In this document: positions 2 through 20,524 of the stretch, one piece after another | Layout: the number at the start of each line of letters is the position of its first letter | Position numbering within the stretch: the first letter of the stretch is position 1 | Assembly: GCA_017561025.1 (NCBI GenBank) | Contig: JAFZDU010000080.1 | Location: forward strand, 1 to 38,926 | Reading direction: 5' to 3' | Length of the DNA stretch: 38,926 nt | Origin: Bacteroidales bacterium | GTDB taxonomy: Bacteria; Bacteroidota; Bacteroidia; Bacteroidales; F082 | Notes under the pieces: model-generated | The model's database searches: none | The model's input: only the letters and a program-made list of their open reading frames with translations | What the model was told of the DNA's origin: nothing | Made by a program: the position numbers and the translations under genes

Positions 2-1081
2 CACACCAATGCTTTGGACGAAGCTATCGCTCTTCCTACAGACTTCTCAGCACGTATCGCTCGTAACACTCAAATCTACATCCAAGAAGAAACTAACGTA
101 TGTAGAGTAGTTGACCCATGGGCAGGTTCATATTACATTGAATCATTGACAAAAGAAATCGCCGACAGAGCTTGGGAACATATCATGGAAATCGAGGCTA
201 TGGGCGGTATGGCAAAAGCTATCGAGACAGGTCTTCCAAAGATGCGTATCGAAGAAGCAGCAGCTCGCAAACAAGCTCGTATCGACGCTGGCAGCGAAAT
301 CATCGTTGGTATCAACAAGTTCCGTCTCGAACATGAAGACGCTATCGAAACTCTCGAAGTCGACAACACTGCAGTTCGCGACTCACAAATCAAACGTCTC
401 AACGAACTCCGCGCTAAACGTAACCAAGCTGACGTCGACCGTTGCTTAGCAGCTATCACTAAAGCAGCTGAAACAGGCGAAGGCAACTTGTTAGAATTAG
501 CCGTTGAAGCAGCTAAATGCCGCGCAACATTAGGCGAAATCTCTATGGCTTGCGAAAAAGTAGCAGGACGTTATAAAGCAGTTATTCGTACAATCTCAGG
601 AGTTTATTCTATGGAAACAAAAGGTGATGCTAAGTTCGCTGAAGCAGTCGCTAAAGCTGACGAATTCGCTAAGATCGAAGGACGCCGTCCTCGTATCATG
701 ATTGCTAAGATGGGTCAAGACGGTCACGACCGCGGAGCTAAAGTCGTAGCAACAGGTTACGCTGACATAGGTTTCGACGTCGATATGGGACCATTGTTCC
801 AAACACCAGCAGAATCAGCACGTCAAGCAGTTGAAAACGACGTTCACATCCTCGGCGTTTCAAGTTTGGCAGCAGGTCACAAGACTCTCGTTCCTCAAGT
901 TATCGAAGAACTTGAAAAATTAGGTCGCCCTGACATCATGGTAGTCGTTGGTGGCGTTATCCCTCCACAAGATTATCAATTCTTATACGACGCTGGCGCA
1001 GCAGCTATCTTCGGACCAGGCTCAGTCATCAGCGAATCAGCAATAAAGATGTTAGATTTACTTTTAGCAGCAGCTAAATAA
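2..1081 (+). CDS. mutB: Methylmalonyl-CoA mutase large subunit, C-terminal part (5' end outside window)
   Basis: Converts succinyl-CoA and (R)-methylmalonyl-CoA into each other with adenosylcobalamin, a cytoplasmic step of propionate formation. The reading frame is open from base 2 and begins inside the catalytic barrel, with the family string [21 protein letters not shown], so the true start lies upstream. The cobalamin-binding domain covers about the last 135 residues. Its DxHxxG motif reads [10 protein letters not shown], with the cobalt-ligand histidine at 725-727, followed by GVSSLAAGH and [12 protein letters not shown]. The cobalamin domain marks this as the large (alpha) subunit; the small subunit gene normally lies just upstream and cannot be seen here. 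Codon use (GCT, CGT, ATC) resembles that of aspS at the other edge, consistent with high expression. A strong hairpin terminator follows, so this is probably the last gene of its operon. Confidence 0.97.
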
Positions 1082-1139: not shown

Positions 1140-1233
1140 ATTATTTACAAAGCAAAACAACAACTTACATCACTCAATATTATTTAATTATTTATCAATA
1201 TATATATCATTAATATTTTTTTTAAATAAATCA

Positions 1234-1263
1234 TTTGTATTTTCCAAAAAAACATTATCTTTG
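1234..1263 (+). promoter_or_regulatory. Bacteroidota-type promoter of the ClpX-like/SecB-like pair
   Basis: TTTG at 1234-1237, 18 bases, then TATCTTTG at 1256-1263 fits the -33/-7 consensus of the Bacteroidota housekeeping sigma factor. The predicted transcript would start near 1268-1270, leaving an AT-rich leader of roughly 195 bases before the ATG at 1464. The rest of the 1082-1463 gap is very AT-rich and shows no other gene. Confidence 0.7.
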
Positions 1264-1463
1264 CGGCCCGCTTTTTACGAAACATACTCTTTATAAACAG
1301 GTGATTATTAGTGTTTAGATTTTATTTTGTCAATTTATTCAAAAAAATTGATAAAATATATTTTTTTGCACCATATAAACAATAAAAACGAAGGTATATC
1401 ATAAGTATTTGAATATTGTCCATATTCTTAGCGGTATATTTATATAACATAAAACATAAAAAA

Positions 1464-2855
1464 ATGAAAAAGACTTATTTTGGAATCCCACTTAACTGTG
1501 AGAATGAGCTTGATGCTTTTAACCTTGCTGCCAGATTATTCTTATGTCCACGTATCAGCGCACAACATGTTGCTGCCTATCTTAACATGTTGTCAAACAA
1601 CGGTATCTCCATAGAAAAGATGCTGGAAAAAACCAATCATGTCATACCCGACTTCAGAGCATCTTTGGGAAACGGAGAAGACGTATCCTCAATCATTAAC
1701 AACAAACTGAAAGAGTGGACCAATATCTTCGCTGCTCCTGACAAAGAGGACTTCGAATTTCTCGAGACCAATTTCGGCATTTCAGAAAAACACCTCTTTA
1801 CAAATAACACAAAGGTGCCAAGGACATTAAGACCTAAAGACATAAACAGCCCACGACTAATGGCAGATTATGTCAAACAATACATCAAAGGTCAAGACGA
1901 CGTTATAGAAAAACTTGCTGTGACTTTTTACCATCACCTCGATAGCCTGAACAAAGGTTACACCAGCTACATAAAGTCGCCTGCAATACTCATCGGTCCA
2001 ACTGGATGCGGTAAAAGTGAAATGCTGAGACATTTTTCCAATGCATGCCGCTGCCCTATCATAAGAATCAACACCAGTGAAATAACACCCACAGGATGGA
2101 GAGGCTTGAATTTGACAGATATCCTAAGAAAAGAAATCGAGATATACGACGACCCCAACAAACTGAAATATGCCATTCTGGTCTTTCATGAATTTGACAA
2201 AATAACACACTATGGAACTCGTGTAAATAAGAGTGATGGAAATGCCAGCGATTTAGATATGATTCGCGACATTATGAGGCTGTTTGAAAAAGACCATCCA
2301 TTAACCATTGAAACAGGAAAGAGTTTTTCTACTACATGCTGCGAACTGCCAACCGACAACTTTCTCATCATCTTCGACGGTGCGTTCTATGGCATTGAAG
2401 AAATAGTAAAAAAACGTTTAAATATCAATAAGACCATCGGATTCTCTTCTAAAGCCAATGACAACAACATCAATTATCAGAAAATGGTGACAGAAGAAGA
2501 TCTTATTGAATGGGGCTATCCTCCTGAATTACTAGGAAGAATAGGCGAGGTTCTTGCGCTGAATCCTTTGTCGTCTGAGACGATTTTCGAAATAATGAAG
2601 ACTACTAAAGACAACATCCTCAATTATCATATCGAATACTGCTCTAATAACAATATCGACCTTAGCTTCTCGGATGACGCCCTGCAATATGTCGCCGACA
2701 AGGCTTATAGTTCAGGACTAGGATTCCGTAATGTGAAGACCATTTTATCTAAAGCACTAAACAATTTATATTACGAATTATCAGAAAATCAGACTTCCAA
2801 CAACAGAAGATCTATAGAAATAGATAAAGAATATTTTAAAAAATCAATAGGCTGA
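1464..2855 (+). CDS. ClpX-like AAA+ unfoldase with a novel N-terminal region
   Basis: 463 aa from ATG 1464; an in-frame TTG at 1416 would add 16 residues but looks unlikely. Residues about 135-463 follow ClpX in order: KQYIKGQDDVIEKLAV (compare YVIGQ), Walker A GPTGCGKS 178-185, a pore-1 loop GWRG 211-214 in place of GYVG, Walker B HEFDK 242-246 (catalytic Glu kept, preceding Asp replaced by His), FLIIFDGAF (sensor 1), a ClpP-docking loop IGF 325-327, the arginine-finger region ELLGRIGEV, and sensor 2 GFR 420-422. ClpX's N-terminal zinc-binding domain is absent and replaced by about 130 residues I do not recognise. Known family role: ATP-driven unfolding of proteins into ClpP. Inferred: the IGF loop means it still docks to ClpP. 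It is followed after 18 bases by a SecB-like gene, which suggests the two act together. It is probably not the housekeeping ClpX. Confidence 0.85.
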   Translation: MKKTYFGIPLNCENELDAFNLAARLFLCPRISAQHVAAYLNMLSNNGISIEKMLEKTNHVIPDFRASLGNGEDVSSIINNKLKEWTNIFAAPDKEDFEFLETNFGISEKHLFTNNTKVPRTLRPKDINSPRLMADYVKQYIKGQDDVIEKLAVTFYHHLDSLNKGYTSYIKSPAILIGPTGCGKSEMLRHFSNACRCPIIRINTSEITPTGWRGLNLTDILRKEIEIYDDPNKLKYAILVFHEFDKITHYGTRVNKSDGNASDLDMIRDIMRLFEKDHPLTIETGKSFSTTCCELPTDNFLIIFDGAFYGIEEIVKKRLNINKTIGFSSKANDNNINYQKMVTEEDLIEWGYPPELLGRIGEVLALNPLSSETIFEIMKTTKDNILNYHIEYCSNNNIDLSFSDDALQYVADKAYSSGLGFRNVKTILSKALNNLYYELSENQTSNNRRSIEIDKEYFKKSIG

Positions 2856-2873
2856 AACATAAAACCATAAGAC

Positions 2874-3944
2874 ATGAACATAAATATTTTCTTGGACCAA
2901 CTTGAATTCGAAAACCTCACCGCTCCCAAATCTTCCATGGAGGCGGACGACATCAGTGTAAGCATCGAATCAAATCATATAAAAAAAAGAAATAGAACGT
3001 CTATATACATCGTTGAAATATATGTATATGTAAAGGCAAAATATAAAAATGAAGAAATCTACACAATATCTTGCAATTATAGTGCGAACGTAAACTTTGA
3101 AGGCAAAACTCCAAATGAGGATGATCTTAATCAGATACTTGAGGATGATGTCCCTCGCAAACTATACAAACATGCACAAGCTTTGGTATGGACACTGTCA
3201 TCAGAATCCGGATTTCCCCCAATTATGCTGAAAAACTATGACGAAGCAAAGCAGACAGCAGATGATAAAGATGAAGCGAAGGACGACAAAAAAGAGTCCA
3301 TCGCTTCAGAGACTCAATGTCACGAACCCTACAACAGTTTCGGTATAAGCCAAGAGCTAGAACAGATCAATGATTTCTTGAATTACACACAGACCTCCAA
3401 CTTCTTTGATGCTCTGAAATCAATTGAAAATATTGATTTAAGCTCTTTCGAGCATTTGACAATTTACAGATATTTGAAACTATTCAGACCTATTGAATAC
3501 CATCACCCTAACTTTAAAAAATGCAATGAGAGTTTTTGGATGATTTTGCCACAATTATTGTTCGCGGCAGGAAAAAAAGTAGAAGTCGTTACAGGCAAAA
3601 GCAAATTCCCTGAAATAGAGTTTGATTCTGAAGACATATTCAGTTATTCTAAAAACAAAAGACGCACTATTTCCAGCCTGAGATTACTCGAACTGAAAAC
3701 CTTGATATCTCATCTGGAAACTAAAATACAGGAAGAAATACCATACGAAATAATGAATATGGATATTTACAATGATTACGCCGACAAGCTCAGCAAGCAC
3801 AAATCCATTTCAAAAGAAGATCTGCTCCGCATTTTAAATGTCAACGAAGATAGTACAGACGCAAATATTACATGCTTTATCAACAAATCATTTGAACGTA
3901 TCGCATACTACGAACTACAAACGCTTCCATATTGCAAGCTATAA
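2874..3944 (+). CDS. Protein with N-terminal SecB-like chaperone domain and unknown C-terminal domain
   Basis: 356 aa, starting 18 bases after the ClpX-like gene and clearly co-transcribed. Residues about 10-125 resemble SecB. Alternating beta-strands (IYIVEIYVYVKAKY, EEIYTISCNYSANV) are followed by VPRKLYKHAQALVWTLSSES and then GFPPIML at 113-119, which matches the SecB signature of a helix and the GFPPL loop. A charged, low-complexity linker (KQTADDKDEAKDDKKES) leads to about 215 residues of mostly helical sequence that I cannot assign. Canonical SecB is about 150 aa, so this is a chimeric or extended form. There is no signal peptide, so it should act in the cytoplasm. Inference from context: it binds unfolded clients and may pass them to the neighbouring unfoldase. 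The SecB-like assignment is by eye and needs profile confirmation. Confidence 0.7.
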   Translation: MNINIFLDQLEFENLTAPKSSMEADDISVSIESNHIKKRNRTSIYIVEIYVYVKAKYKNEEIYTISCNYSANVNFEGKTPNEDDLNQILEDDVPRKLYKHAQALVWTLSSESGFPPIMLKNYDEAKQTADDKDEAKDDKKESIASETQCHEPYNSFGISQELEQINDFLNYTQTSNFFDALKSIENIDLSSFEHLTIYRYLKLFRPIEYHHPNFKKCNESFWMILPQLLFAAGKKVEVVTGKSKFPEIEFDSEDIFSYSKNKRRTISSLRLLELKTLISHLETKIQEEIPYEIMNMDIYNDYADKLSKHKSISKEDLLRILNVNEDSTDANITCFINKSFERIAYYELQTLPYCKL

Positions 3945-4003
3945 TCTCTAGGGCGCCAAAGGGTAGCCAAAAACAACAACATCCCTGCTTTTATAGGAAT
4001 ACA

Positions 4004-4177: not shown

Positions 4178-4251
4178 ATTATTTTTCTTTTTTTGGAATC
4201 ATAATACTTAATATTTTTTTAGAAAAAAATCGAGCATCTTGGCTAATTACT

Positions 4252-4259
4252 TATCTTTG
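4252..4259 (+). promoter_or_regulatory. Promoter -7 box immediately before the HsdR-N gene
   Basis: TATCTTTG lies only 6 bases before ATG 4266. A transcript starting the usual few bases after the box would have essentially no leader. It also argues against the TTG start at 4239, which lies upstream of this box. Confidence 0.6.
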
Positions 4260-4265
4260 CATCAA

Positions 4266-4691
4266 ATGAATTGGTTTAACACTATAATAGAAGACGGCAA
4301 GACGAAAGTCTTTGATCCTGTAAGAAAAATCTACTGTACCCTTACTCCAGAAGAAAAAGTAAGGCAGATGACTTTGTATTACCTGGTAGAGAAGAAAAAC
4401 ATTCCTGCAGGACTCATTGCGGTAGAATATTCCATCAAGGTCAACAATTTACCCAAACGCTGCGACATAGTGATATTCAATAGACAAGCGAAGCCAATAA
4501 TGATAGTCGAGTGCAAAGCTGAGACTGTGAGCATAACAGAAAAAGTCCTTGATCAGGCAATAAGATATTACTCCGGACTTAATGTCAATTACCTTTTACT
4601 TACAAACGGCAAGACGATGTACTGCTATCACATCGACATTGAAAACAACAAGATAGAAGCTCTAAGGGAGATTCCAGAGCTTTTAGGCTAA
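4266..4691 (+). CDS. Stand-alone HsdR N-terminal (PD-(D/E)xK) domain protein
   Basis: 141 aa. It matches the small 'type I restriction enzyme HsdR N-terminal domain' proteins common in Bacteroidota: the opening with KVFDPVRKIYCTLTPEEKVRQ, then a PD-(D/E)xK core with D67 (RCDIVIFN) and E82-x-K84 (IVECKAE), followed by LDQAIRYYSGLNVNYLLLTNG. The catalytic triad is complete, so nuclease activity is possible. No helicase (HsdR), methylase (HsdM) or specificity (HsdS) gene is nearby, so it is not a working type I restriction system here. The in-frame TTG at 4239 was rejected because it precedes the promoter box. The cellular role of this family is not established. It converges with the DUF1294 gene. 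Confidence 0.85.
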   Translation: MNWFNTIIEDGKTKVFDPVRKIYCTLTPEEKVRQMTLYYLVEKKNIPAGLIAVEYSIKVNNLPKRCDIVIFNRQAKPIMIVECKAETVSITEKVLDQAIRYYSGLNVNYLLLTNGKTMYCYHIDIENNKIEALREIPELLG

Positions 4692-15509: not shown

Positions 15510-16262
15510 CTATTCTATAATGAGTTTTTCAACTTTACCTGCAAGTTCAATAAAGTAAACTCCTTTATCTAAATCCTCTATGTTGATTATCGCATCACTA
15601 ACATCTTCTACATAAACGCTTTTCACGCAGCGTCCTGTCATATCGAAGATATTGATATCACAGCTTCCACTTGCTGATGACTTGATATTGACGAACGATG
15701 TTGCAGGATTTGGATATAAGCCTAAACTCTCATCATTTACTTCAGCGATATTGTCAACAACCATCTTGTCTTCTATCTCAGCAATGAGTTCTTGAGCATC
15801 CATGATAGGCCATATATTATCAATAAGGATTCGTTTGTCTGGAGCTATAAGAACAAATGTTGAGAATATTATCACCCCATAATCCTCGCAGATCTCATGA
15901 GCATCGTCGCCTACAGATATTCTGTTAATGACAGGAAAATCGACTTCATATTCCATTCTCCAGTTAGCAATGCTGAGGCTGTCGTCAGAAGGAGCTACAC
16001 CAACGAAATAAACATCACCTTGGTTGTCACCGAAATGATGATATGCCTGCGCAATATTAGGATCGAAATAAGGTGAAGTCTCAGCATCTGAGAAAAAGAA
16101 ATACATAACCACGTTCTGTCCTCTTTCAAGGATTTCAAACAAATGAACGTTTGTACCATAATCATCTATTGACTGAAAATCGACAGCTTCTGTCAATGAA
16201 GTCTGAGCTTTGACATTAAAACTGAAAAGCAAAGCGAAAACAAAAAGTAAAACTCTCTTCAT
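15510..16262 (-). CDS. T9SS cargo, thioredoxin-like domain without CxxC (paralog 1)
   Basis: 250 aa, the shortest of four paralogs. Signal peptide to about residue 19 (SFNVKAQ). A thioredoxin/TlpA-like domain follows (HLFEILERGQNVVMYFFFSDAETSPYFDPNIAQAYHHFG, STFVLIAPDKRILID), but the active-site CxxC found in paralogs 3 and 4 is replaced by DAETSP, so no redox activity is expected. It lacks the fibronectin-like middle domain and goes directly to a type A T9SS sorting domain: LGLYPNPATSFVNI, INIFDMTGRCVK, INIEDLDKGVYFIELAGKVEKLIIE. The protein should cross the outer membrane by T9SS and be surface-anchored or released. It is likely a decayed or repurposed copy. Confidence 0.85.
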   Translation of the reverse strand: MKRVLLFVFALLFSFNVKAQTSLTEAVDFQSIDDYGTNVHLFEILERGQNVVMYFFFSDAETSPYFDPNIAQAYHHFGDNQGDVYFVGVAPSDDSLSIANWRMEYEVDFPVINRISVGDDAHEICEDYGVIIFSTFVLIAPDKRILIDNIWPIMDAQELIAEIEDKMVVDNIAEVNDESLGLYPNPATSFVNIKSSASGSCDINIFDMTGRCVKSVYVEDVSDAIINIEDLDKGVYFIELAGKVEKLIIE

Positions 16263-16302
16263 AACTTTATCTTTATTTGATTAAACATTTAAAGAAATTC
16301 AG

Positions 16303-16341
16303 AACCTCAGAACCTCAAAAAAACTCTGAGGTTCTGAGGTT
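16303..16341 (-). terminator. Terminator after T9SS paralog 2 (CTCAGAACCTCAG type)
   Basis: A perfect 15-bp stem, AACCTCAGAACCTCA (16303-16317) with TGAGGTTCTGAGGTT (16327-16341), lies 11 bases past the stop of the gene at 16353. T-rich flanks occur on both strands. Confidence 0.8.
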
Positions 16342-16352
16342 TTGAATTTCTT

Positions 16353-17720
16353 CTATTCTATAATAAGTTTCTCAACTTTACCATTAACATTAACGAAATA
16401 GATTCCTTTATTCAAGTCTTCAACGTTGATTGTCGCGTTGTCCACAGCGCTAACTTCTTTCACACAACGACCTGTCATATCGAAGATTCTTATTTCTGCG
16501 CTGCCTTTCAAATTAACACAAACTGTCGACTTAGCAGGATTTGGTGTTATTTCTAACTTAACATCTTCCAATTCCATACATGATTCCATCTCTGTTCTGA
16601 ATGGCACCACTGTCAATTCTCCCATAACATCGTCTGTATTCATTCCGACTGCAACAGCATATAAATCTGTCAAAGGAGGAAGTTCGTCCCAAATCCATTC
16701 GTCTACATCATACAAAGGGAATTCGTCATCAAAGAGAATATCTATTATCTCCGACTCTTCAAGTTCTTCATATTCTTCTTTCAAGAACAATCCATAATGA
16801 TATTCGCCTGTAAATTCATTAGGTGTCGCCTTTGTATATACCTGAGTCTCGCTCATCACTTCCACTTCCAGTTCTATCACAGATGGTCCTGCCACCGCCA
16901 AAGTTGCCACGCTCATCTTCTGGATTTCGCCATGAGTACCTTCAAAGTTTTCAGGAAGCACATAAATATTATATGTCGTCTCTGGTGTCAAGTCGCTCCA
17001 GATATATGTGCAGTTACCTGATTTCTCAACACCTTGTTCGTCCAAGATCTGCTCAAGAGGAATGTCCTGCTCTTCCAAGATATCGCCTTCGCCCATCAGG
17101 AAATGATATGACTCACAGACGAAGTTAGGCTCGAACTCCACAATCATAGATGTAGAAGATTTTTTCATAACTTCCATTGACACTTCTGGCAACACAGTGC
17201 TGCATTCATGTTCTTCGATGCCGAATGGAGTAAGAGCGTCGATGATGTTTTCCACATACATGACAGGGTAAATCTGCTGAAGCACGATCTCGCGGTTTGG
17301 AGCAATCAATATCACGGTAGGATAAATAGGAATCTGATACATCTGGCATATCTCGTCACCCGAATCGCCTTCCGATTCAGTATGTATCGTTGGGAACATA
17401 ATTCCATATTCGTTGCACCATGCTCTTGCACCTGCCTCATTATCAAAACGAGATATCTCCATATAATATACATCATGCTCGTTACATCCGAAATATTGGT
17501 ATGACTGTATCATTTTATTAACGTATGTCAAAGCTCCTGATGAGGTGCTGTAGAAAAATTCAATAAGCACATACTGACCGCCATCCAATATCTCGAACAA
17601 ATCTATATGTTCGCCATTGAGAGCAACTGATGTAAAGTTAACTGCTTCTGTCAAAGGTGTCTGCGCCTTTACGTTAAAACCGAAAAGCAATGCAAAAAGT
17701 AATGGTAAAATTCTCTTCAT
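16353..17720 (-). CDS. T9SS cargo, thioredoxin-like domain without CxxC plus fibronectin-like domains (paralog 2)
   Basis: 455 aa from ATG 17720; the reading from 17726 needs a TTG. Signal peptide to about residue 20 (FGFNVKAQ). The thioredoxin-like domain matches paralogs 3 and 4 (HIDLFEILDGGQYVLIEFFY, GCNEHDVYYMEISRFD, PIYPTVILIAPNREIVLQQIYP), but the CxxC position reads STSSGAL. Two fibronectin-like segments follow (CESYHFLMGEGD to YNIYVLPENFEGTHG, and GPSVIELEVEV to LYAVAVGMNTDD). It ends with a type A T9SS sorting domain (EITPNPAKSTVCVNL, IRIFDMTGRCVKEV, NKGIYFVNVNGKVEKLIIE). Predicted to be exported and non-redox; perhaps a binding or scaffold protein. Confidence 0.85.
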   Translation of the reverse strand: MKRILPLLFALLFGFNVKAQTPLTEAVNFTSVALNGEHIDLFEILDGGQYVLIEFFYSTSSGALTYVNKMIQSYQYFGCNEHDVYYMEISRFDNEAGARAWCNEYGIMFPTIHTESEGDSGDEICQMYQIPIYPTVILIAPNREIVLQQIYPVMYVENIIDALTPFGIEEHECSTVLPEVSMEVMKKSSTSMIVEFEPNFVCESYHFLMGEGDILEEQDIPLEQILDEQGVEKSGNCTYIWSDLTPETTYNIYVLPENFEGTHGEIQKMSVATLAVAGPSVIELEVEVMSETQVYTKATPNEFTGEYHYGLFLKEEYEELEESEIIDILFDDEFPLYDVDEWIWDELPPLTDLYAVAVGMNTDDVMGELTVVPFRTEMESCMELEDVKLEITPNPAKSTVCVNLKGSAEIRIFDMTGRCVKEVSAVDNATINVEDLNKGIYFVNVNGKVEKLIIE

Positions 17721-17759
17721 AAGCAAGTGTTTATTTGATTTATTAACTTTTAAAAACTC

Positions 17760-17801
17760 AAAAACTCAGAATCTCAAAAATTTCTGAGGTTCTGAGTTTT
17801 T
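17760..17801 (-). terminator. Terminator after T9SS paralog 3 (CTCAGAACCTCAG type)
   Basis: AAAAACTCAGAATCTCA (17760-17776) pairs with TGAGGTTCTGAGTTTTT (17785-17801), one G-T pair, 24 bases past the stop of the gene at 17826, with T-rich sequence after the stem on the minus strand. Confidence 0.8.
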
Positions 17802-17825
17802 GATATTTTGTGTTAATGAATTTTA

Positions 17826-19253
17826 TTATTCAACAACGAGTTTTTGAACATTACCGTTGACGTTAACAAAGTAGATACCTTTGTTTAAGTCTTCGATATT
17901 GACTGTTGTGTTACCAGAAACATTAACTTCTTTTACGCAGCGGCCTGTCATGTCGAAGAATTTAACTTGAGCGTCGCCGTTTAAGTTAACGTTAACTGAT
18001 GATTTTGCTGGGTTAGGGTTAACTGTGAATTCGATGCTTGAATTTTCAGCGATGTAATCTGGATCTTCTGGATCTTCTGGATCTTCTGGATCTTCTGGAT
18101 CGTCGCCGCCTTCACCAACTTTAAATCTTACGTATACTGGTTCACCTAATTCTGCTTCAGCATTGTAACCGATACCATAGCAATAGTATTCAACGCCTTC
18201 TTCGAAGTAAGCGATATCTAATTGCCAGAAGTCGTCACCGCAAACAGGATGTTGGTCGCGTAATAATTGGAAGATAGCGTATTCTTCGCCCCATTCTTCG
18301 AATTTAGAAACTTTAACGAAAGCGTAGTGGTATTCTGATGTTGAGCTATTTGGGAAAGCGTCAGCGATAACGAAACCAGGAACTACAGCAACATTAAGTT
18401 CGAGAACTGCTACACCAGCTGTTGCTTCACATTTTGTTTTAGCTGTTTCAACTTTAACTGTACCGAAGTCACCTTCTGCGCTTACTGGAAGAGCGTAGAT
18501 GTTATATTCTGTTGAAGCTGATAATTCTGTGAATGTGTGTAAGCCACCTTCTGTGAGTTCTGTACCTTGAGCTTTTACTTCTTCAGCGCTGAGGTTTGCT
18601 GATGTGCTTGCTAAAACATAGTATTTAGCAGTTGATGCGTTTGGAGTGAACTTAACATCGATAGCATATGAAGCTTCTCTTTCAACTTCGAAAACGATAG
18701 CTGGAGCTTGAGCATCTTCGCATTCGTGTTCTTCAATGCCAAATGGAGCGAGAGCGTCAACGATTGTTTGTCCAGATGAAATAGGCCAAATATCTTGGAG
18801 TAAGATTTCACGGTCTGGAGAAATGAGGATCATTGTTGGGTAACCTGCTGGGTTATACATATCGCAGATGTCACCACCACTTTGTTCACCACCGCTTGTC
18901 AAGTAGATTGTTGGATATTCAACACCGTATGTTTCAATCCAGTTATCGATGAAGTAGTAAGGTGCGTCATTGTGGTCTATTGGAGAGATTTCCATGAAGA
19001 AAACATCATGTTGGTTGCAACCTAATGAGTAGTAAGCGTCAACAACACTTGGAAGAGCATTTTGGCATGGTTGACATGATGTAAAGAAGAAGTCAATCAA
19101 AACATATTGGCCGCCATCGAGGATGTCGAACAAATGAATTTCTTGGCCATGATGGTCAACTGTTTTAAAGTCGATAGCTTCTGTGATAGAGACTTGAGCT
19201 CTAACACCAATGCTCAATACGAGAGCGAAAAATAATGTAAAAAGCTTTTTCAT
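17826..19253 (-). CDS. T9SS cargo, thioredoxin domain with CQPC plus fibronectin-like domains (paralog 3)
   Basis: 475 aa. Signal peptide to residue 20 (SIGVRAQ). TlpA/thioredoxin-like domain with an intact active site C60-Q-P-C63 (IDFFFTSCQPCQNALPSVV), the VFFMEISPID segment, and the cis-Pro strand AGYPTMILISPDREIL. Fibronectin-like domains follow (YAIDVKFTPNASTAKYYVLAS, AVLELNVAVVPGFVIADAFPNSSTSEYHYAFVKV). Then come an EDP tripeptide repeat (DNA 18058-18102) and a type A T9SS sorting domain (FTVNPNPAKSSVNVNL, VKFFDMTGRCVKEV, NKGIYFVNVNGNVQKLVVE). Its codons (GGT, GTT, TCT, CCA) look more uniform than in the sister genes, consistent with stronger expression. Likely a surface or secreted disulfide-active protein; substrate unknown. 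Confidence 0.9.
   Translation of the reverse strand: MKKLFTLFFALVLSIGVRAQVSITEAIDFKTVDHHGQEIHLFDILDGGQYVLIDFFFTSCQPCQNALPSVVDAYYSLGCNQHDVFFMEISPIDHNDAPYYFIDNWIETYGVEYPTIYLTSGGEQSGGDICDMYNPAGYPTMILISPDREILLQDIWPISSGQTIVDALAPFGIEEHECEDAQAPAIVFEVEREASYAIDVKFTPNASTAKYYVLASTSANLSAEEVKAQGTELTEGGLHTFTELSASTEYNIYALPVSAEGDFGTVKVETAKTKCEATAGVAVLELNVAVVPGFVIADAFPNSSTSEYHYAFVKVSKFEEWGEEYAIFQLLRDQHPVCGDDFWQLDIAYFEEGVEYYCYGIGYNAEAELGEPVYVRFKVGEGGDDPEDPEDPEDPEDPDYIAENSSIEFTVNPNPAKSSVNVNLNGDAQVKFFDMTGRCVKEVNVSGNTTVNIEDLNKGIYFVNVNGNVQKLVVE
18058..18102 (-). repeat. 9-bp tandem repeat encoding (EDP)n
   Basis: Five units of TCTGGATCT on the plus strand encode a Glu-Asp-Pro tract on the minus strand, a linker between the fibronectin-like region and the T9SS sorting domain of paralog 3. 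Confidence 0.95.
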
Positions 19254-19298
19254 TTTAAAATTGTTAATGAATTAAATAAATGTTAATGAAATTTTCTG

Positions 19299-19306
19299 CA
19301 AAGTTA
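19299..19306 (-). promoter_or_regulatory. Promoter -7 box of T9SS paralog 3
   Basis: CAAAGTTA on plus reads TAACTTTG on minus, about 45 bases upstream of ATG 19253. Confidence 0.5.
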
Positions 19307-19310
19307 ACTT

Positions 19311-19356
19311 ATTTTTCCGTTTAAATAAATATAAAAATATATAAAACGGAAAAAAT
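19311..19356. repeat. Dyad just upstream of the paralog 3 promoter
   Basis: ATTTTTCCGTTT (19311-19322) pairs with AAACGGAAAAAAT (19344-19356) across an AT-rich loop. It directly abuts the -7 box at 19299, so it could be an operator or part of the upstream promoter region. A related ACGGAAAAA word occurs before gldB (near 12214). Confidence 0.55.
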
Positions 19357-19389
19357 TTATGTTGAACTAAATTTTGGGGTATTTGTGGT

Positions 19390-19434
19390 TTCGACAGGCT
19401 CAACCACCGCCTGTTGATGCCTGAGCTTGTCGAA
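19390..19434 (-). terminator. Hairpin after T9SS paralog 4 (GCCTGTCGAA-type palindrome)
   Basis: TTCGACAGGCTCA (19390-19402) pairs with TGAGCTTGTCGAA (19422-19434), one G-T pair, 13 bases past the stop of the gene at 19448. This palindrome family reappears inside the U32 gene at 37553-37585. There is no strong T tract, so it may be a mobile palindrome acting as a terminator. Confidence 0.65.
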
Positions 19435-19447
19435 GGCATTTATATAT

Positions 19448-20524
19448 TTATTTCACCACCAACTTCTTGACGCTTTCGTTAACATTGATGAAATAAACGC
19501 CTTTGTTCAAATCTTCAATGTTTATTGTTGTATTAACGCCTTCAATTTGCACTTCCTTAACACAGCGCGATGTCATGTCGAAGATTTTGACGATGCCTTT
19601 AGTGTCTGATATTATGTTAATTGATGAAGAAGCTGGATTTGGATAAATGCTGAAGTTTGTCTTTACAAATTCGTCGAAGCCATCCACTTCAGTTCTGAAA
19701 GGAACTATCGTTGTCTCGCCCCATTCGCCTTCTGAGTTCTGACCTGTTGCTATTGCGTAATAATCTGTTTCTGGAGTAAGGTCAATCCATTCCCAGATAT
19801 CAACTTCGTAGAATGGATATGAATCTTCGCGGAACATCTGTACCGCTGCTTCCTCGCCGATTTCATCGAAGTATGATTTCTCCATCAATCCATAATGATA
19901 GACAGATGTCTCTTCATTTGGAGTTGCTGTGGTCTTTACAGAAGTATTTGACAACACTTCAACGAGGAGTTCAATCACTGAAGGTCCAATTTCCGGAGCG
20001 TCTTCGCAGCTATGTTCTTCAATGCCGTAAGGTGCTAAATAATCGATGATTGTCTGAGCATCAGGTATTGGATATATGTCGATATCTTGAAATGCTATTG
20101 ATCTGTCAGGAGCGATAAGGACGAAAGTAGGATAAGAATGAATGTCATAAATCTCATCAACTTCCAATCCGCCGCCTGCTGAACCTATCGTTGGATATTC
20201 CACGCCATAACGTTCTGCCCACCATTGACATACATCGTTGTTATCGACAGGAGAAATTTCCATGAAGAAAACATCATGCTTGTTGCAGCCTAACGCCTTG
20301 TATGCCTCAACGACTTTAGGCGCCACTGTCTGACAAGGAGTGCAATTCATGAAAAAGAAATCGATAAGAACATATTGACCTCTGTCCAATATATCAAAAA
20401 GAGTGATTTCTTCTTCGCCGTAACATTCTGTAACCGTGAAGTTAACAGCTTCTGTAAGCGATGTTTGAGCCTTAATATTTATACATAAAAAAATCGCAAT
20501 GATAAGGGTAAATAATTTTTTCAT
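19448..20524 (-). CDS. T9SS cargo, thioredoxin domain with CTPC plus one fibronectin-like domain (paralog 4)
   Basis: 358 aa. Signal peptide to residue 20 (CINIKAQ). Thioredoxin/TlpA-like domain with active site C61-T-P-C64 (IDFFFMNCTPCQTVAPKVVEAY), VFFMEISPVDNND and SYPTFVLIAPDRS. A shared EEHSCED segment leads to one fibronectin-like domain (GPSVIELLVEVLSNTSVKTTATPNEETSVYHYGLMEK to YYAIATGQNSEGEWG) and a type A T9SS sorting domain (FSIYPNPASSSINI, VKIFDMTSRCVKEV, NKGVYFINVNESVKKLVVK). Likely redox-active outside the outer membrane. It has its own promoter at 20556-20563 and is divergent from the mevalonate operon. Confidence 0.9.
   Translation of the reverse strand: MKKLFTLIIAIFLCINIKAQTSLTEAVNFTVTECYGEEEITLFDILDRGQYVLIDFFFMNCTPCQTVAPKVVEAYKALGCNKHDVFFMEISPVDNNDVCQWWAERYGVEYPTIGSAGGGLEVDEIYDIHSYPTFVLIAPDRSIAFQDIDIYPIPDAQTIIDYLAPYGIEEHSCEDAPEIGPSVIELLVEVLSNTSVKTTATPNEETSVYHYGLMEKSYFDEIGEEAAVQMFREDSYPFYEVDIWEWIDLTPETDYYAIATGQNSEGEWGETTIVPFRTEVDGFDEFVKTNFSIYPNPASSSINIISDTKGIVKIFDMTSRCVKEVQIEGVNTTINIEDLNKGVYFINVNESVKKLVVK

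What the first reader, a model, noticed from the sequence alone, without database searches (positions are those of the whole stretch)
1464..3944. ClpX-like unfoldase paired with a SecB-like chaperone-domain protein
Two co-transcribed genes, 18 bases apart. The first keeps ClpX's catalytic set and the IGF loop that docks ClpP (residues 325-327), but it has lost the zinc-binding adaptor domain and has an unfamiliar N-terminus, a GWRG pore loop and a His in place of the Walker B Asp. The second starts with what looks like a SecB domain (GFPPIML after an amphipathic helix), followed by about 215 unknown residues. SecB holds unfolded proteins and ClpX destroys them. A natural hypothesis is that the SecB-like protein acts as a client-collecting adaptor that feeds the unfoldase, replacing the lost adaptor domain. 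I know of no described system of this design.
Basis: partly seen in the sequence, partly recalled or inferred. Interest (0 to 1): 0.78.

Follow-up and report, generated by a model that had tools for sequence, protein, structure and literature searches.

The report
ClpX-like unfoldase with SecB-domain partner
A rare two-gene cassette in gut Bacteroidales encodes a ClpX-like protein-unfolding motor and a partner protein that usually starts with a SecB chaperone fold, which looks like an unfamiliar way of feeding chosen proteins to the cell's shredder, although no contact or substrate has been shown.

Summary
Gene 1 (1464-2855) is a ClpX-type AAA+ unfoldase of a lineage separate from the host's canonical clpP-clpX. 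The lineage keeps the catalytic Lys, Glu and Arg residues and a ClpP-type [IVM]G[FY] loop; it lost the zinc domain, the RKH loop and the pore-2 signature. Gene 2 (2874-3944) has a true SecB domain (Pfam 1.5e-11; predicted fold matches SecB and Rv1957), a low-confidence linker and a new helical C-terminal domain. In 20 of 21 testable loci the genes are adjacent; both are under purifying selection. One relative keeps only a scar of about the last 22 codons of gene 2, so the cassette is dispensable. Two loci (L072, L089) keep only the C-terminal domain, the better candidate for the AAA-docking part; the Walker-B His is one of four residues found at that site. Best explanation: a dedicated adaptor-unfoldase pair feeding host ClpP (0.5). 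Contact, ClpP docking and substrates are untested. Some loci add PP2C and/or KptA genes. No description was seen in the paper searches made.

The parts
1464..2855 (+). ClpX-like AAA+ unfoldase gene (463 aa)
   Evidence: ClpX profiles E 1.3e-46 (NF003745) and 8.6e-40 (TIGR00382), far below the equivalog cut-offs; family profile A8 against PDB ClpX E 1.5e-58
1464..1826 (+). family-specific N-terminal domain (residues 1-121) in place of the ClpX zinc-binding domain
   Evidence: G7, F26, W85 invariant in 18; model of residues 1-134 helical, mean pLDDT 76.4; best PDB match E 3.9
1995..2018 (+). Walker A GPTGCGKS (residues 178-185)
   Evidence: Lys kept in 20 of 20 with sequence there
2094..2105 (+). 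pore loop 1, GWRG (211-214), in place of GYVG
   Evidence: Trp and last Gly in 20 of 20
2178..2201 (+). Walker B LVFHEFDK (239-246); catalytic Glu243 kept, Asp replaced by His
   Evidence: Glu in 20 of 20; Asp position H, D, N or T
2436..2444 (+). IGF loop (325-327), predicted ClpP-docking
   Evidence: [IVM]G[FY] in 21 of 21; aligns with the IGF of a solved ClpX
2874..3944 (+). SecB-domain partner protein gene (356 aa)
   Evidence: matches a profile of the other 19 partners
2874..3275 (+). SecB domain (residues 1-134)
   Evidence: PF02556 1.5e-11; four strands then two helices; Foldseek 5mtw 4.2e-8, 1qyn 5.0e-8
3279..3428 (+). low-confidence (perhaps disordered) linker, residues 136-185
   Evidence: pLDDT below 50
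3429..3941 (+). C-terminal, mostly helical domain (186-356), kept also where SecB is missing; proposed AAA-docking domain
   Evidence: P206 Y209 P212 W222 L225 P246 L269 Y340 I343 at least 90% kept; no Pfam family
1149..3999 (.). stretch missing in relative G009 (L121), where only the 3' end of gene 2 remains

Best explanation
The two genes form a self-contained, accessory substrate-delivery module. Gene 1 makes a hexameric ClpX-type unfoldase that docks on the host ClpP through its IGF loop but no longer reads ClpX's own degrons. Gene 2 is its dedicated adaptor: the SecB head holds unfolded or newly made clients, and the C-terminal domain docks on the family-specific N-terminal domain of the unfoldase, which then threads the client through its Trp-lined pore into ClpP. 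Shown: the pair, its conservation, the SecB fold, the retained and lost motifs. Inferred: hexamer, docking, delivery, ClpP use and the clients.
For: AAA directly followed by the partner in 20 of 21 testable loci; each of the 20 partners matches a profile built from the other 19, weakest L086 at 2.4e-28. Distances within the two proteins correlate, r 0.75, 0 of 5000 permutations, n 16. The family is one side of a 100/100 branch against 22 ClpX. The ClpP-type loop is kept in 21 of 21, while the pore-2 signature and the GGRKHP loop, invariant in the 22 ClpX compared, are lost in 18 of 18, and the zinc motif in 18 of 18: the pattern expected if docking on ClpP is kept and substrate choice has moved elsewhere. 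ClpP in 10 of 10 carrier genomes. SecB fold (16 of 20 partners by Pfam). Purifying selection on both genes.
Against: No complex could be modelled. SecB is missing in L072 and L089; Pfam SecB was not found at E<=0.001 in G036 and G018 either, though their partners align there. L081 has the AAA without any partner. G089 has a related SecB-only protein with no family AAA in its genome. Canonical ClpX already serves ClpP. The distance correlation may come from joint inheritance alone, and some of the 22 loci are close kin.
Confidence: 0.5

Rival explanations
1. ClpP-independent remodeller: the AAA and the SecB-domain protein form a disaggregase or complex-remodelling machine, with SecB catching what the pore releases.
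For: Canonical ClpX already serves ClpP; ClpX is known to remodel without ClpP (recalled); no ClpP gene in the cassette.
Against: The ClpP-type loop is kept in 21 of 21, in a lineage where other substrate-handling loops have been lost.
Confidence: 0.2
2. Conflict or defence sensor: the SecB head recognises an invader's protein (as CmdC does with the T4 capsid protein) and the unfoldase destroys that protein or releases an effector.
For: Patchy distribution, deletion in G009, window grouping with a Tidjanibacter MAG, single loci beside restriction, TIR-like or SLATT-like genes, PP2C/KptA genes in some; CmdTAC precedent (PMC11618068, passages).
Against: No strong PADLOC hit for either protein (DolB 5e-5 on the AAA at best), no toxin in the window cassette, gene 2 not found in phage or plasmid records (gene 1 was not searched there). 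Only 10 hand-picked neighbours of 6 loci were scanned against PADLOC.
Confidence: 0.17
3. Regulated substrate: the partner is not an adaptor but the main client of the AAA, a switch protein that is degraded on a signal.
For: Operonic pairing; long low-confidence linker; the partner evolves faster (dN 0.206 against 0.103).
Against: A SecB chaperone fold with a folded C-terminal domain is more than a degron needs.
Confidence: 0.08
4. Chance neighbours or decaying genes.
For: L081 lacks the partner; the G037 AAA is split in two frames; G009 has a scar.
Against: 20 of 21 loci, open frames in the window, dN/dS 0.14 and 0.21.
Confidence: 0.02

Closest known systems
ClpX (TIGR00382 / NF003745)
   Same: AAA+ module over about 340 residues, Walker A Lys, catalytic Glu, Arg finger, sensor-2 Arg, [IVM]G[FY] loop
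   Different: 28% identity to the host ClpX; no zinc motif; GYVG replaced by [GQSA]W[KRS]G; SITRDVSGEGVQQ and GGRKHP loops lost; Walker B Asp variable; below equivalog cut-offs
SecB (PF02556) and SecB-like TAC chaperones (Rv1957, CmdC)
   Same: SecB fold; nearest solved structure is Rv1957 with its antitoxin peptide (5mtw)
   Different: followed by a linker and a new C-terminal domain; no toxin-antitoxin genes beside it; paired with an unfoldase
CmdTAC anti-phage system (PMC11618068, passages read)
   Same: SecB-like chaperone and ClpP act on the same client
   Different: there the chaperone protects the antitoxin from ClpP and the three named components include no unfoldase; here an unfoldase gene is encoded and the proposed flow is towards ClpP
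Clp adaptors such as SspB (recalled)
   Same: separate protein that delivers clients to ClpX
   Different: SspB docks on the zinc domain (recalled), which is missing here; it is not a SecB fold
Phage family phrog_4339 (unknown function)
   Same: matches the AAA at 1.7e-26, so ClpX-like AAA proteins occur in phages
   Different: 552-position profile; best stretch covers residues 233-448 only; no SecB-domain partner known to me, not followed up

Membership tests
ClpX | Equivalog profile score over the curated cut-off | tested here: not met
   137 against 370.75 (TIGR00382), 159.3 against 359 (NF003745)
ClpX | N-terminal C4 zinc-binding domain | tested here: not met
   motif in 0 of 18 family, 22 of 22 ClpX
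ClpX | Walker A Lys, catalytic Glu, Arg finger, sensor-2 Arg | tested here: met
ClpX | GYVG pore loop and RKH loop | tested here: not met
   Trp in place of Tyr in 18 of 18; GGRKHP lost in 18 of 18. The 22 ClpX were picked by a GYVGED motif, so GYVG in them is by construction
ClpX | ClpP-docking IGF-type loop | tested here: met
   21 of 21
ClpX | Binds ClpP and drives degradation | not testable with these tools
   no complex prediction or bench
SecB superfamily | Pfam SecB over the gathering score | tested here: met
   44.8 against 26; 16 of 20 partners match at E<=0.01
SecB superfamily | SecB fold (four strands, two helices) | tested here: met
SecB export chaperone (NCBIfam equivalog) | Score over curated cut-off | tested here: not met
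   best 47.9 against 143
SecB export chaperone | Tetramer, SecA binding, client groove | not testable with these tools
   monomer model only
Toxin-antitoxin-chaperone (TAC) system | Toxin and antitoxin genes beside the SecB-like gene | tested here: not met
   window neighbours are a mutase (named by eye), tRNA-Glu and an HSDR_N_2 protein

The most novel reading that the evidence does not exclude
A new class of AAA+ protease system in gut Bacteroidales, in which a SecB-fold holdase is hard-wired by a dedicated docking domain to its own ClpX-derived unfoldase and hands over nascent foreign (for example phage) proteins to the host ClpP, with PP2C or KptA modules as regulators or effectors in some lineages.
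Probability: 0.2. Interest if true: 0.85.

Novelty: new variant of a known kind. Interest (0 to 1): 0.62.

Why it matters
If true, a holdase chaperone is coupled to an unfoldase as its adaptor, a direct route from chaperone to protease that I know of in no described system. It would also mean that a ClpX paralog shares ClpP with the canonical ClpX through the same kind of loop while reading other clients. It is testable with three purified proteins.

Tried and rejected
Viral contigs scan with gene 2: no relative. Scan with A5 in viral contigs gave one locus (L092), a ClpX with a zinc-finger-like start by eye; dropped. Plasmid and phage records: no match to gene 2. Phylum-wide: no family AAA in 395 genomes besides the window's own; the partner profile gave four weak extra hits of 395, and in the family draw one weak hit in G087 besides G089 and the carriers. 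N-terminal domain fold search: no match at E<=0.001. C-terminal domain: no Pfam family; among the 50 of 1223 Foldseek rows shown for the whole protein I recognised no C-terminal match, but the table gives no ranges. Cassette-end repeats: only an 11-mer at 1154 and 3970, not taken as evidence. A TAC reading was rejected for want of a toxin-antitoxin pair. The Walker-B His as a mark of a dead ATPase was rejected: Glu is kept and the Asp site varies. L076 (titled Acholeplasmatales) and L086 (titled Clostridia) are short MAG contigs and may be mis-binned; they are counted among the 22 but not used to claim presence outside Bacteroidales.

Rows dropped: duplicates L051, L053, L073-L075, L083, L085 (same contig or same ORFs as a locus kept); L092; for the tree and the ClpX comparison L052, L084, L087, L088 (split or truncated AAA) were left out; the 22 ClpX came from 23 loci tried (L092 not picked up) and are those most similar to the query among the hits.

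Full report
OBSERVATION. The two ORFs are real and as described: 1464-2855 and 2874-3944, separated by 18 nt. The first matches ClpX profiles (NF003745 1.3e-46; TIGR00382 8.6e-40) but scores less than half of either equivalog cut-off. The second carries a Pfam SecB domain at residues 4-121, 44.8 bits against a cut-off of 26. The AlphaFold2 model (20-row alignment, mean pLDDT 75.8, pTM 0.48) gives four strands and two helices for residues 1-134, a low-confidence linker 136-185 and a mostly helical domain thereafter. Foldseek's best matches are Rv1957 (5mtw, 4.2e-8) and E. coli SecB (1qyn, 5.0e-8).

HOST AND SETTING. The window is contig C82 of a 2.79 Mb, 126-contig genome. Its first 9 kb are 99.97% identical to a contig of G077; the record with the same length and ORFs (L085) is titled Bacteroidales bacterium from water buffalo colon. 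The same genome has a canonical clpP-clpX pair with an intact zinc finger at C54, 28% identical to the window AAA. ClpP was found in 10 of 10 carrier genomes searched.

DISTRIBUTION. The partner was found in 10 of 199 relatives and the family AAA (E below 1e-50) in 9 of 199, the window's own genome included. All nine AAA genomes have the partner; the tenth partner genome (G089) has a SecB-only 167-aa protein in another neighbourhood and only a canonical-type ClpX hit. Wider draws at E<=1e-90: 3 of 393 in the order and 1 of 395 in the phylum, the window itself. A pattern scan of one genome per species for 84,980 species gave 19 loci, 17 of them titled as Bacteroidales lineages (mostly gut or rumen MAGs, plus the isolate Heminiphilus faecis AM35); this is a lower bound.

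CO-CONSERVATION. After removing duplicates there are 22 distinct loci (window, L046-L050, L052, L072, L076-L082, L084, L086-L091); some are close kin (L072 and L089; L048 and L049), so they are not 22 independent events. L078 ends 135 bases after the AAA and cannot be tested. In 20 of the other 21 the AAA is directly followed by the partner: 19 by BLAST clustering, and L086 by alignment. Each of the 20 partners matches a profile of the other 19, weakest L086 at 2.4e-28. Gaps are 2-96 nt in the 19 measured; L052, whose AAA is split in two frames, has 2 nt by its coordinates. The exception, L081, has the AAA ahead of a gene that clusters with the one after the pair in two other Alistipes MAGs (L084, L087; rimP by eye); no partner relic was found there. 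Distances within the two proteins correlate (r 0.75, 0 of 5000 permutations, n 16; three loci with truncated AAA dropped). This shows joint inheritance, not contact.

A SEPARATE UNFOLDASE LINEAGE. In a 40-row tree the 18 family proteins and 22 ClpX are split by a 100/100 branch; several branches are long and many inner forks open, so inner order is unsure. Kept: Walker A Lys, Walker B Glu, Arg finger, sensor-2 Arg, and an [IVM]G[FY] loop in 21 of 21, at the position of the IGF loop of a solved ClpX. The 22 ClpX have [IV]G[YF] there. Lost: the C4 zinc motif (0 of 18 against 22 of 22), SITRDVSGEGVQQ, and GGRKHP (0 of 18 each; invariant in the 22 ClpX). That the RKH and pore-2 loops handle degrons and that the IGF loop docks ClpP is recalled knowledge of ClpX. 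GYVG has become [GQSA]W[KRS]G; the ClpX set was picked by GYVGED, so its GYVG is by construction. The Walker-B Asp is His, Asp, Asn or Thr. The N-terminal region is a family-specific helical domain (mean pLDDT 76.4) without a PDB match at E<=0.001. A phage family of unknown function, phrog_4339, matches the AAA at 1.7e-26, not followed up.

THE PARTNER. 16 of 20 partners match Pfam SecB at E<=0.01. In L072 and L089 the SecB part is replaced by an acidic, low-complexity N-terminus while the C-terminal domain is kept. In the whole-genome search G036 and G018 gave no Pfam SecB match at E<=0.001, although their partners align with the SecB part. I therefore propose that the C-terminal domain is what binds the AAA and that SecB is its usual client-binding head.

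SELECTION AND LOSS. Window against G084: dN 0.103, dS 0.737 over 463 codons (AAA) and dN 0.206, dS 0.966 over 314 codons (partner). Relative G009 shares both flanks (mutase, tRNA-Glu, HSDR_N_2 gene) but lacks window 1149-3999. In its place is a remnant that reads, in frame, as about the last 22 codons of the partner and its stop (19-residue tblastn match to residues 335-353, 74%, E 8e-5 in a database of eight short sequences). So the cassette was once present there and was deleted: it is dispensable. The other six stretches fetched (one from the window's own genome) share only the mutase end and have other genes after it.

NEIGHBOURS ELSEWHERE. Three loci have a PP2C-type gene next (L079, L090, L091; Pfam on L091 only, the others by clustering). 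Three have a KptA/Tpt1-family gene (L077, L090, L091; Pfam on all three). L047-L050, L052 and L076 have a large protein next (cluster C3; three members scanned, no Pfam family over its cut-off), followed in five of the six by genes of cluster C2, of which the one scanned is BspA-type LRR_5. Calcineurin-like phosphoesterase genes lie near four (L049, L050, L086, L088; Pfam on L086 only). Of ten hand-picked neighbours from six loci, PADLOC gave restriction genes in L090, a TIR-like in L079 and weak hits in L048 and L088. None of these is in the window, where the pair stands alone, so the two genes look like the minimal unit.

MECHANISM. The loss of ClpX's own substrate-reading parts with retention of the ClpP-type loop, in a gene tied to a holdase-headed protein, is best explained by adaptor-driven proteolysis (0.5). 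Rivals are a ClpP-independent remodeller (0.2), a defence or conflict sensor in the manner of CmdTAC (0.17), and the partner as a regulated substrate (0.08).

LITERATURE. Six searches of open PMC papers combining SecB, SecB-like, ClpX, ClpX-like, ClpXP, adaptor, Bacteroidetes or Bacteroidales, PP2C, AAA+, anti-phage and unfoldase showed no description of such a pair in the titles and abstract starts listed; the lists were cut (15 of 922; 12 of 27; 12 of 19). I read passages of PMC7159879 and PMC11618068 and only listings of the others. Most subscription papers and all preprints are outside the library.

Noticed in passing
L121 (G009:C67), opposite window 1149-3999: Deletion scar: about the last 22 codons of the partner gene between mutase and tRNA-Glu.
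   Followed up: yes
L072 7819-8790 and L089 2444-3409: Partner proteins without the SecB domain, with acidic low-complexity N-terminus, beside intact family AAA; L089 has a gene of the LRR cluster C2 next.
   Followed up: partly
L079 9011-9766, L090 11462-12692, L091 11367-13608, L077 8214-8765: PP2C-type and KptA/Tpt1 (RNA 2'-phosphotransferase) genes next to the pair in some loci.
   Followed up: partly
L081, L084, L087: Three Alistipes MAGs carry the AAA ahead of the same three genes (rimP, nusA, infB by eye); L081 lacks the partner.
   Followed up: partly
window 4239-4691: Small stand-alone HSDR_N_2 (type I restriction R N-terminus) protein beside tRNA-Glu, also in G084 and G009.
   Followed up: no
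window 15510-20524: Four neighbouring minus-strand genes of one cluster (C5), secreted by eye; relatives in L046.
   Followed up: no
window 2-1081 and G000:C117 1687-2277: Two mutase copies in this draft genome, 99% identical over 197 residues, with different genes after them; may be a mixed bin.
   Followed up: no
L054 8550-15913 (G089) and L050 734-6749 (G018): Shared block of four gene clusters (C43-C46; Pfam on L050: transglutaminase, transglycosylase/transpeptidase) beside SecB-domain genes in two genomes.
   Followed up: no
window 1464-2852 against PHROGs: phrog_4339, a phage family of unknown function, matches the AAA at 1.7e-26.
   Followed up: no
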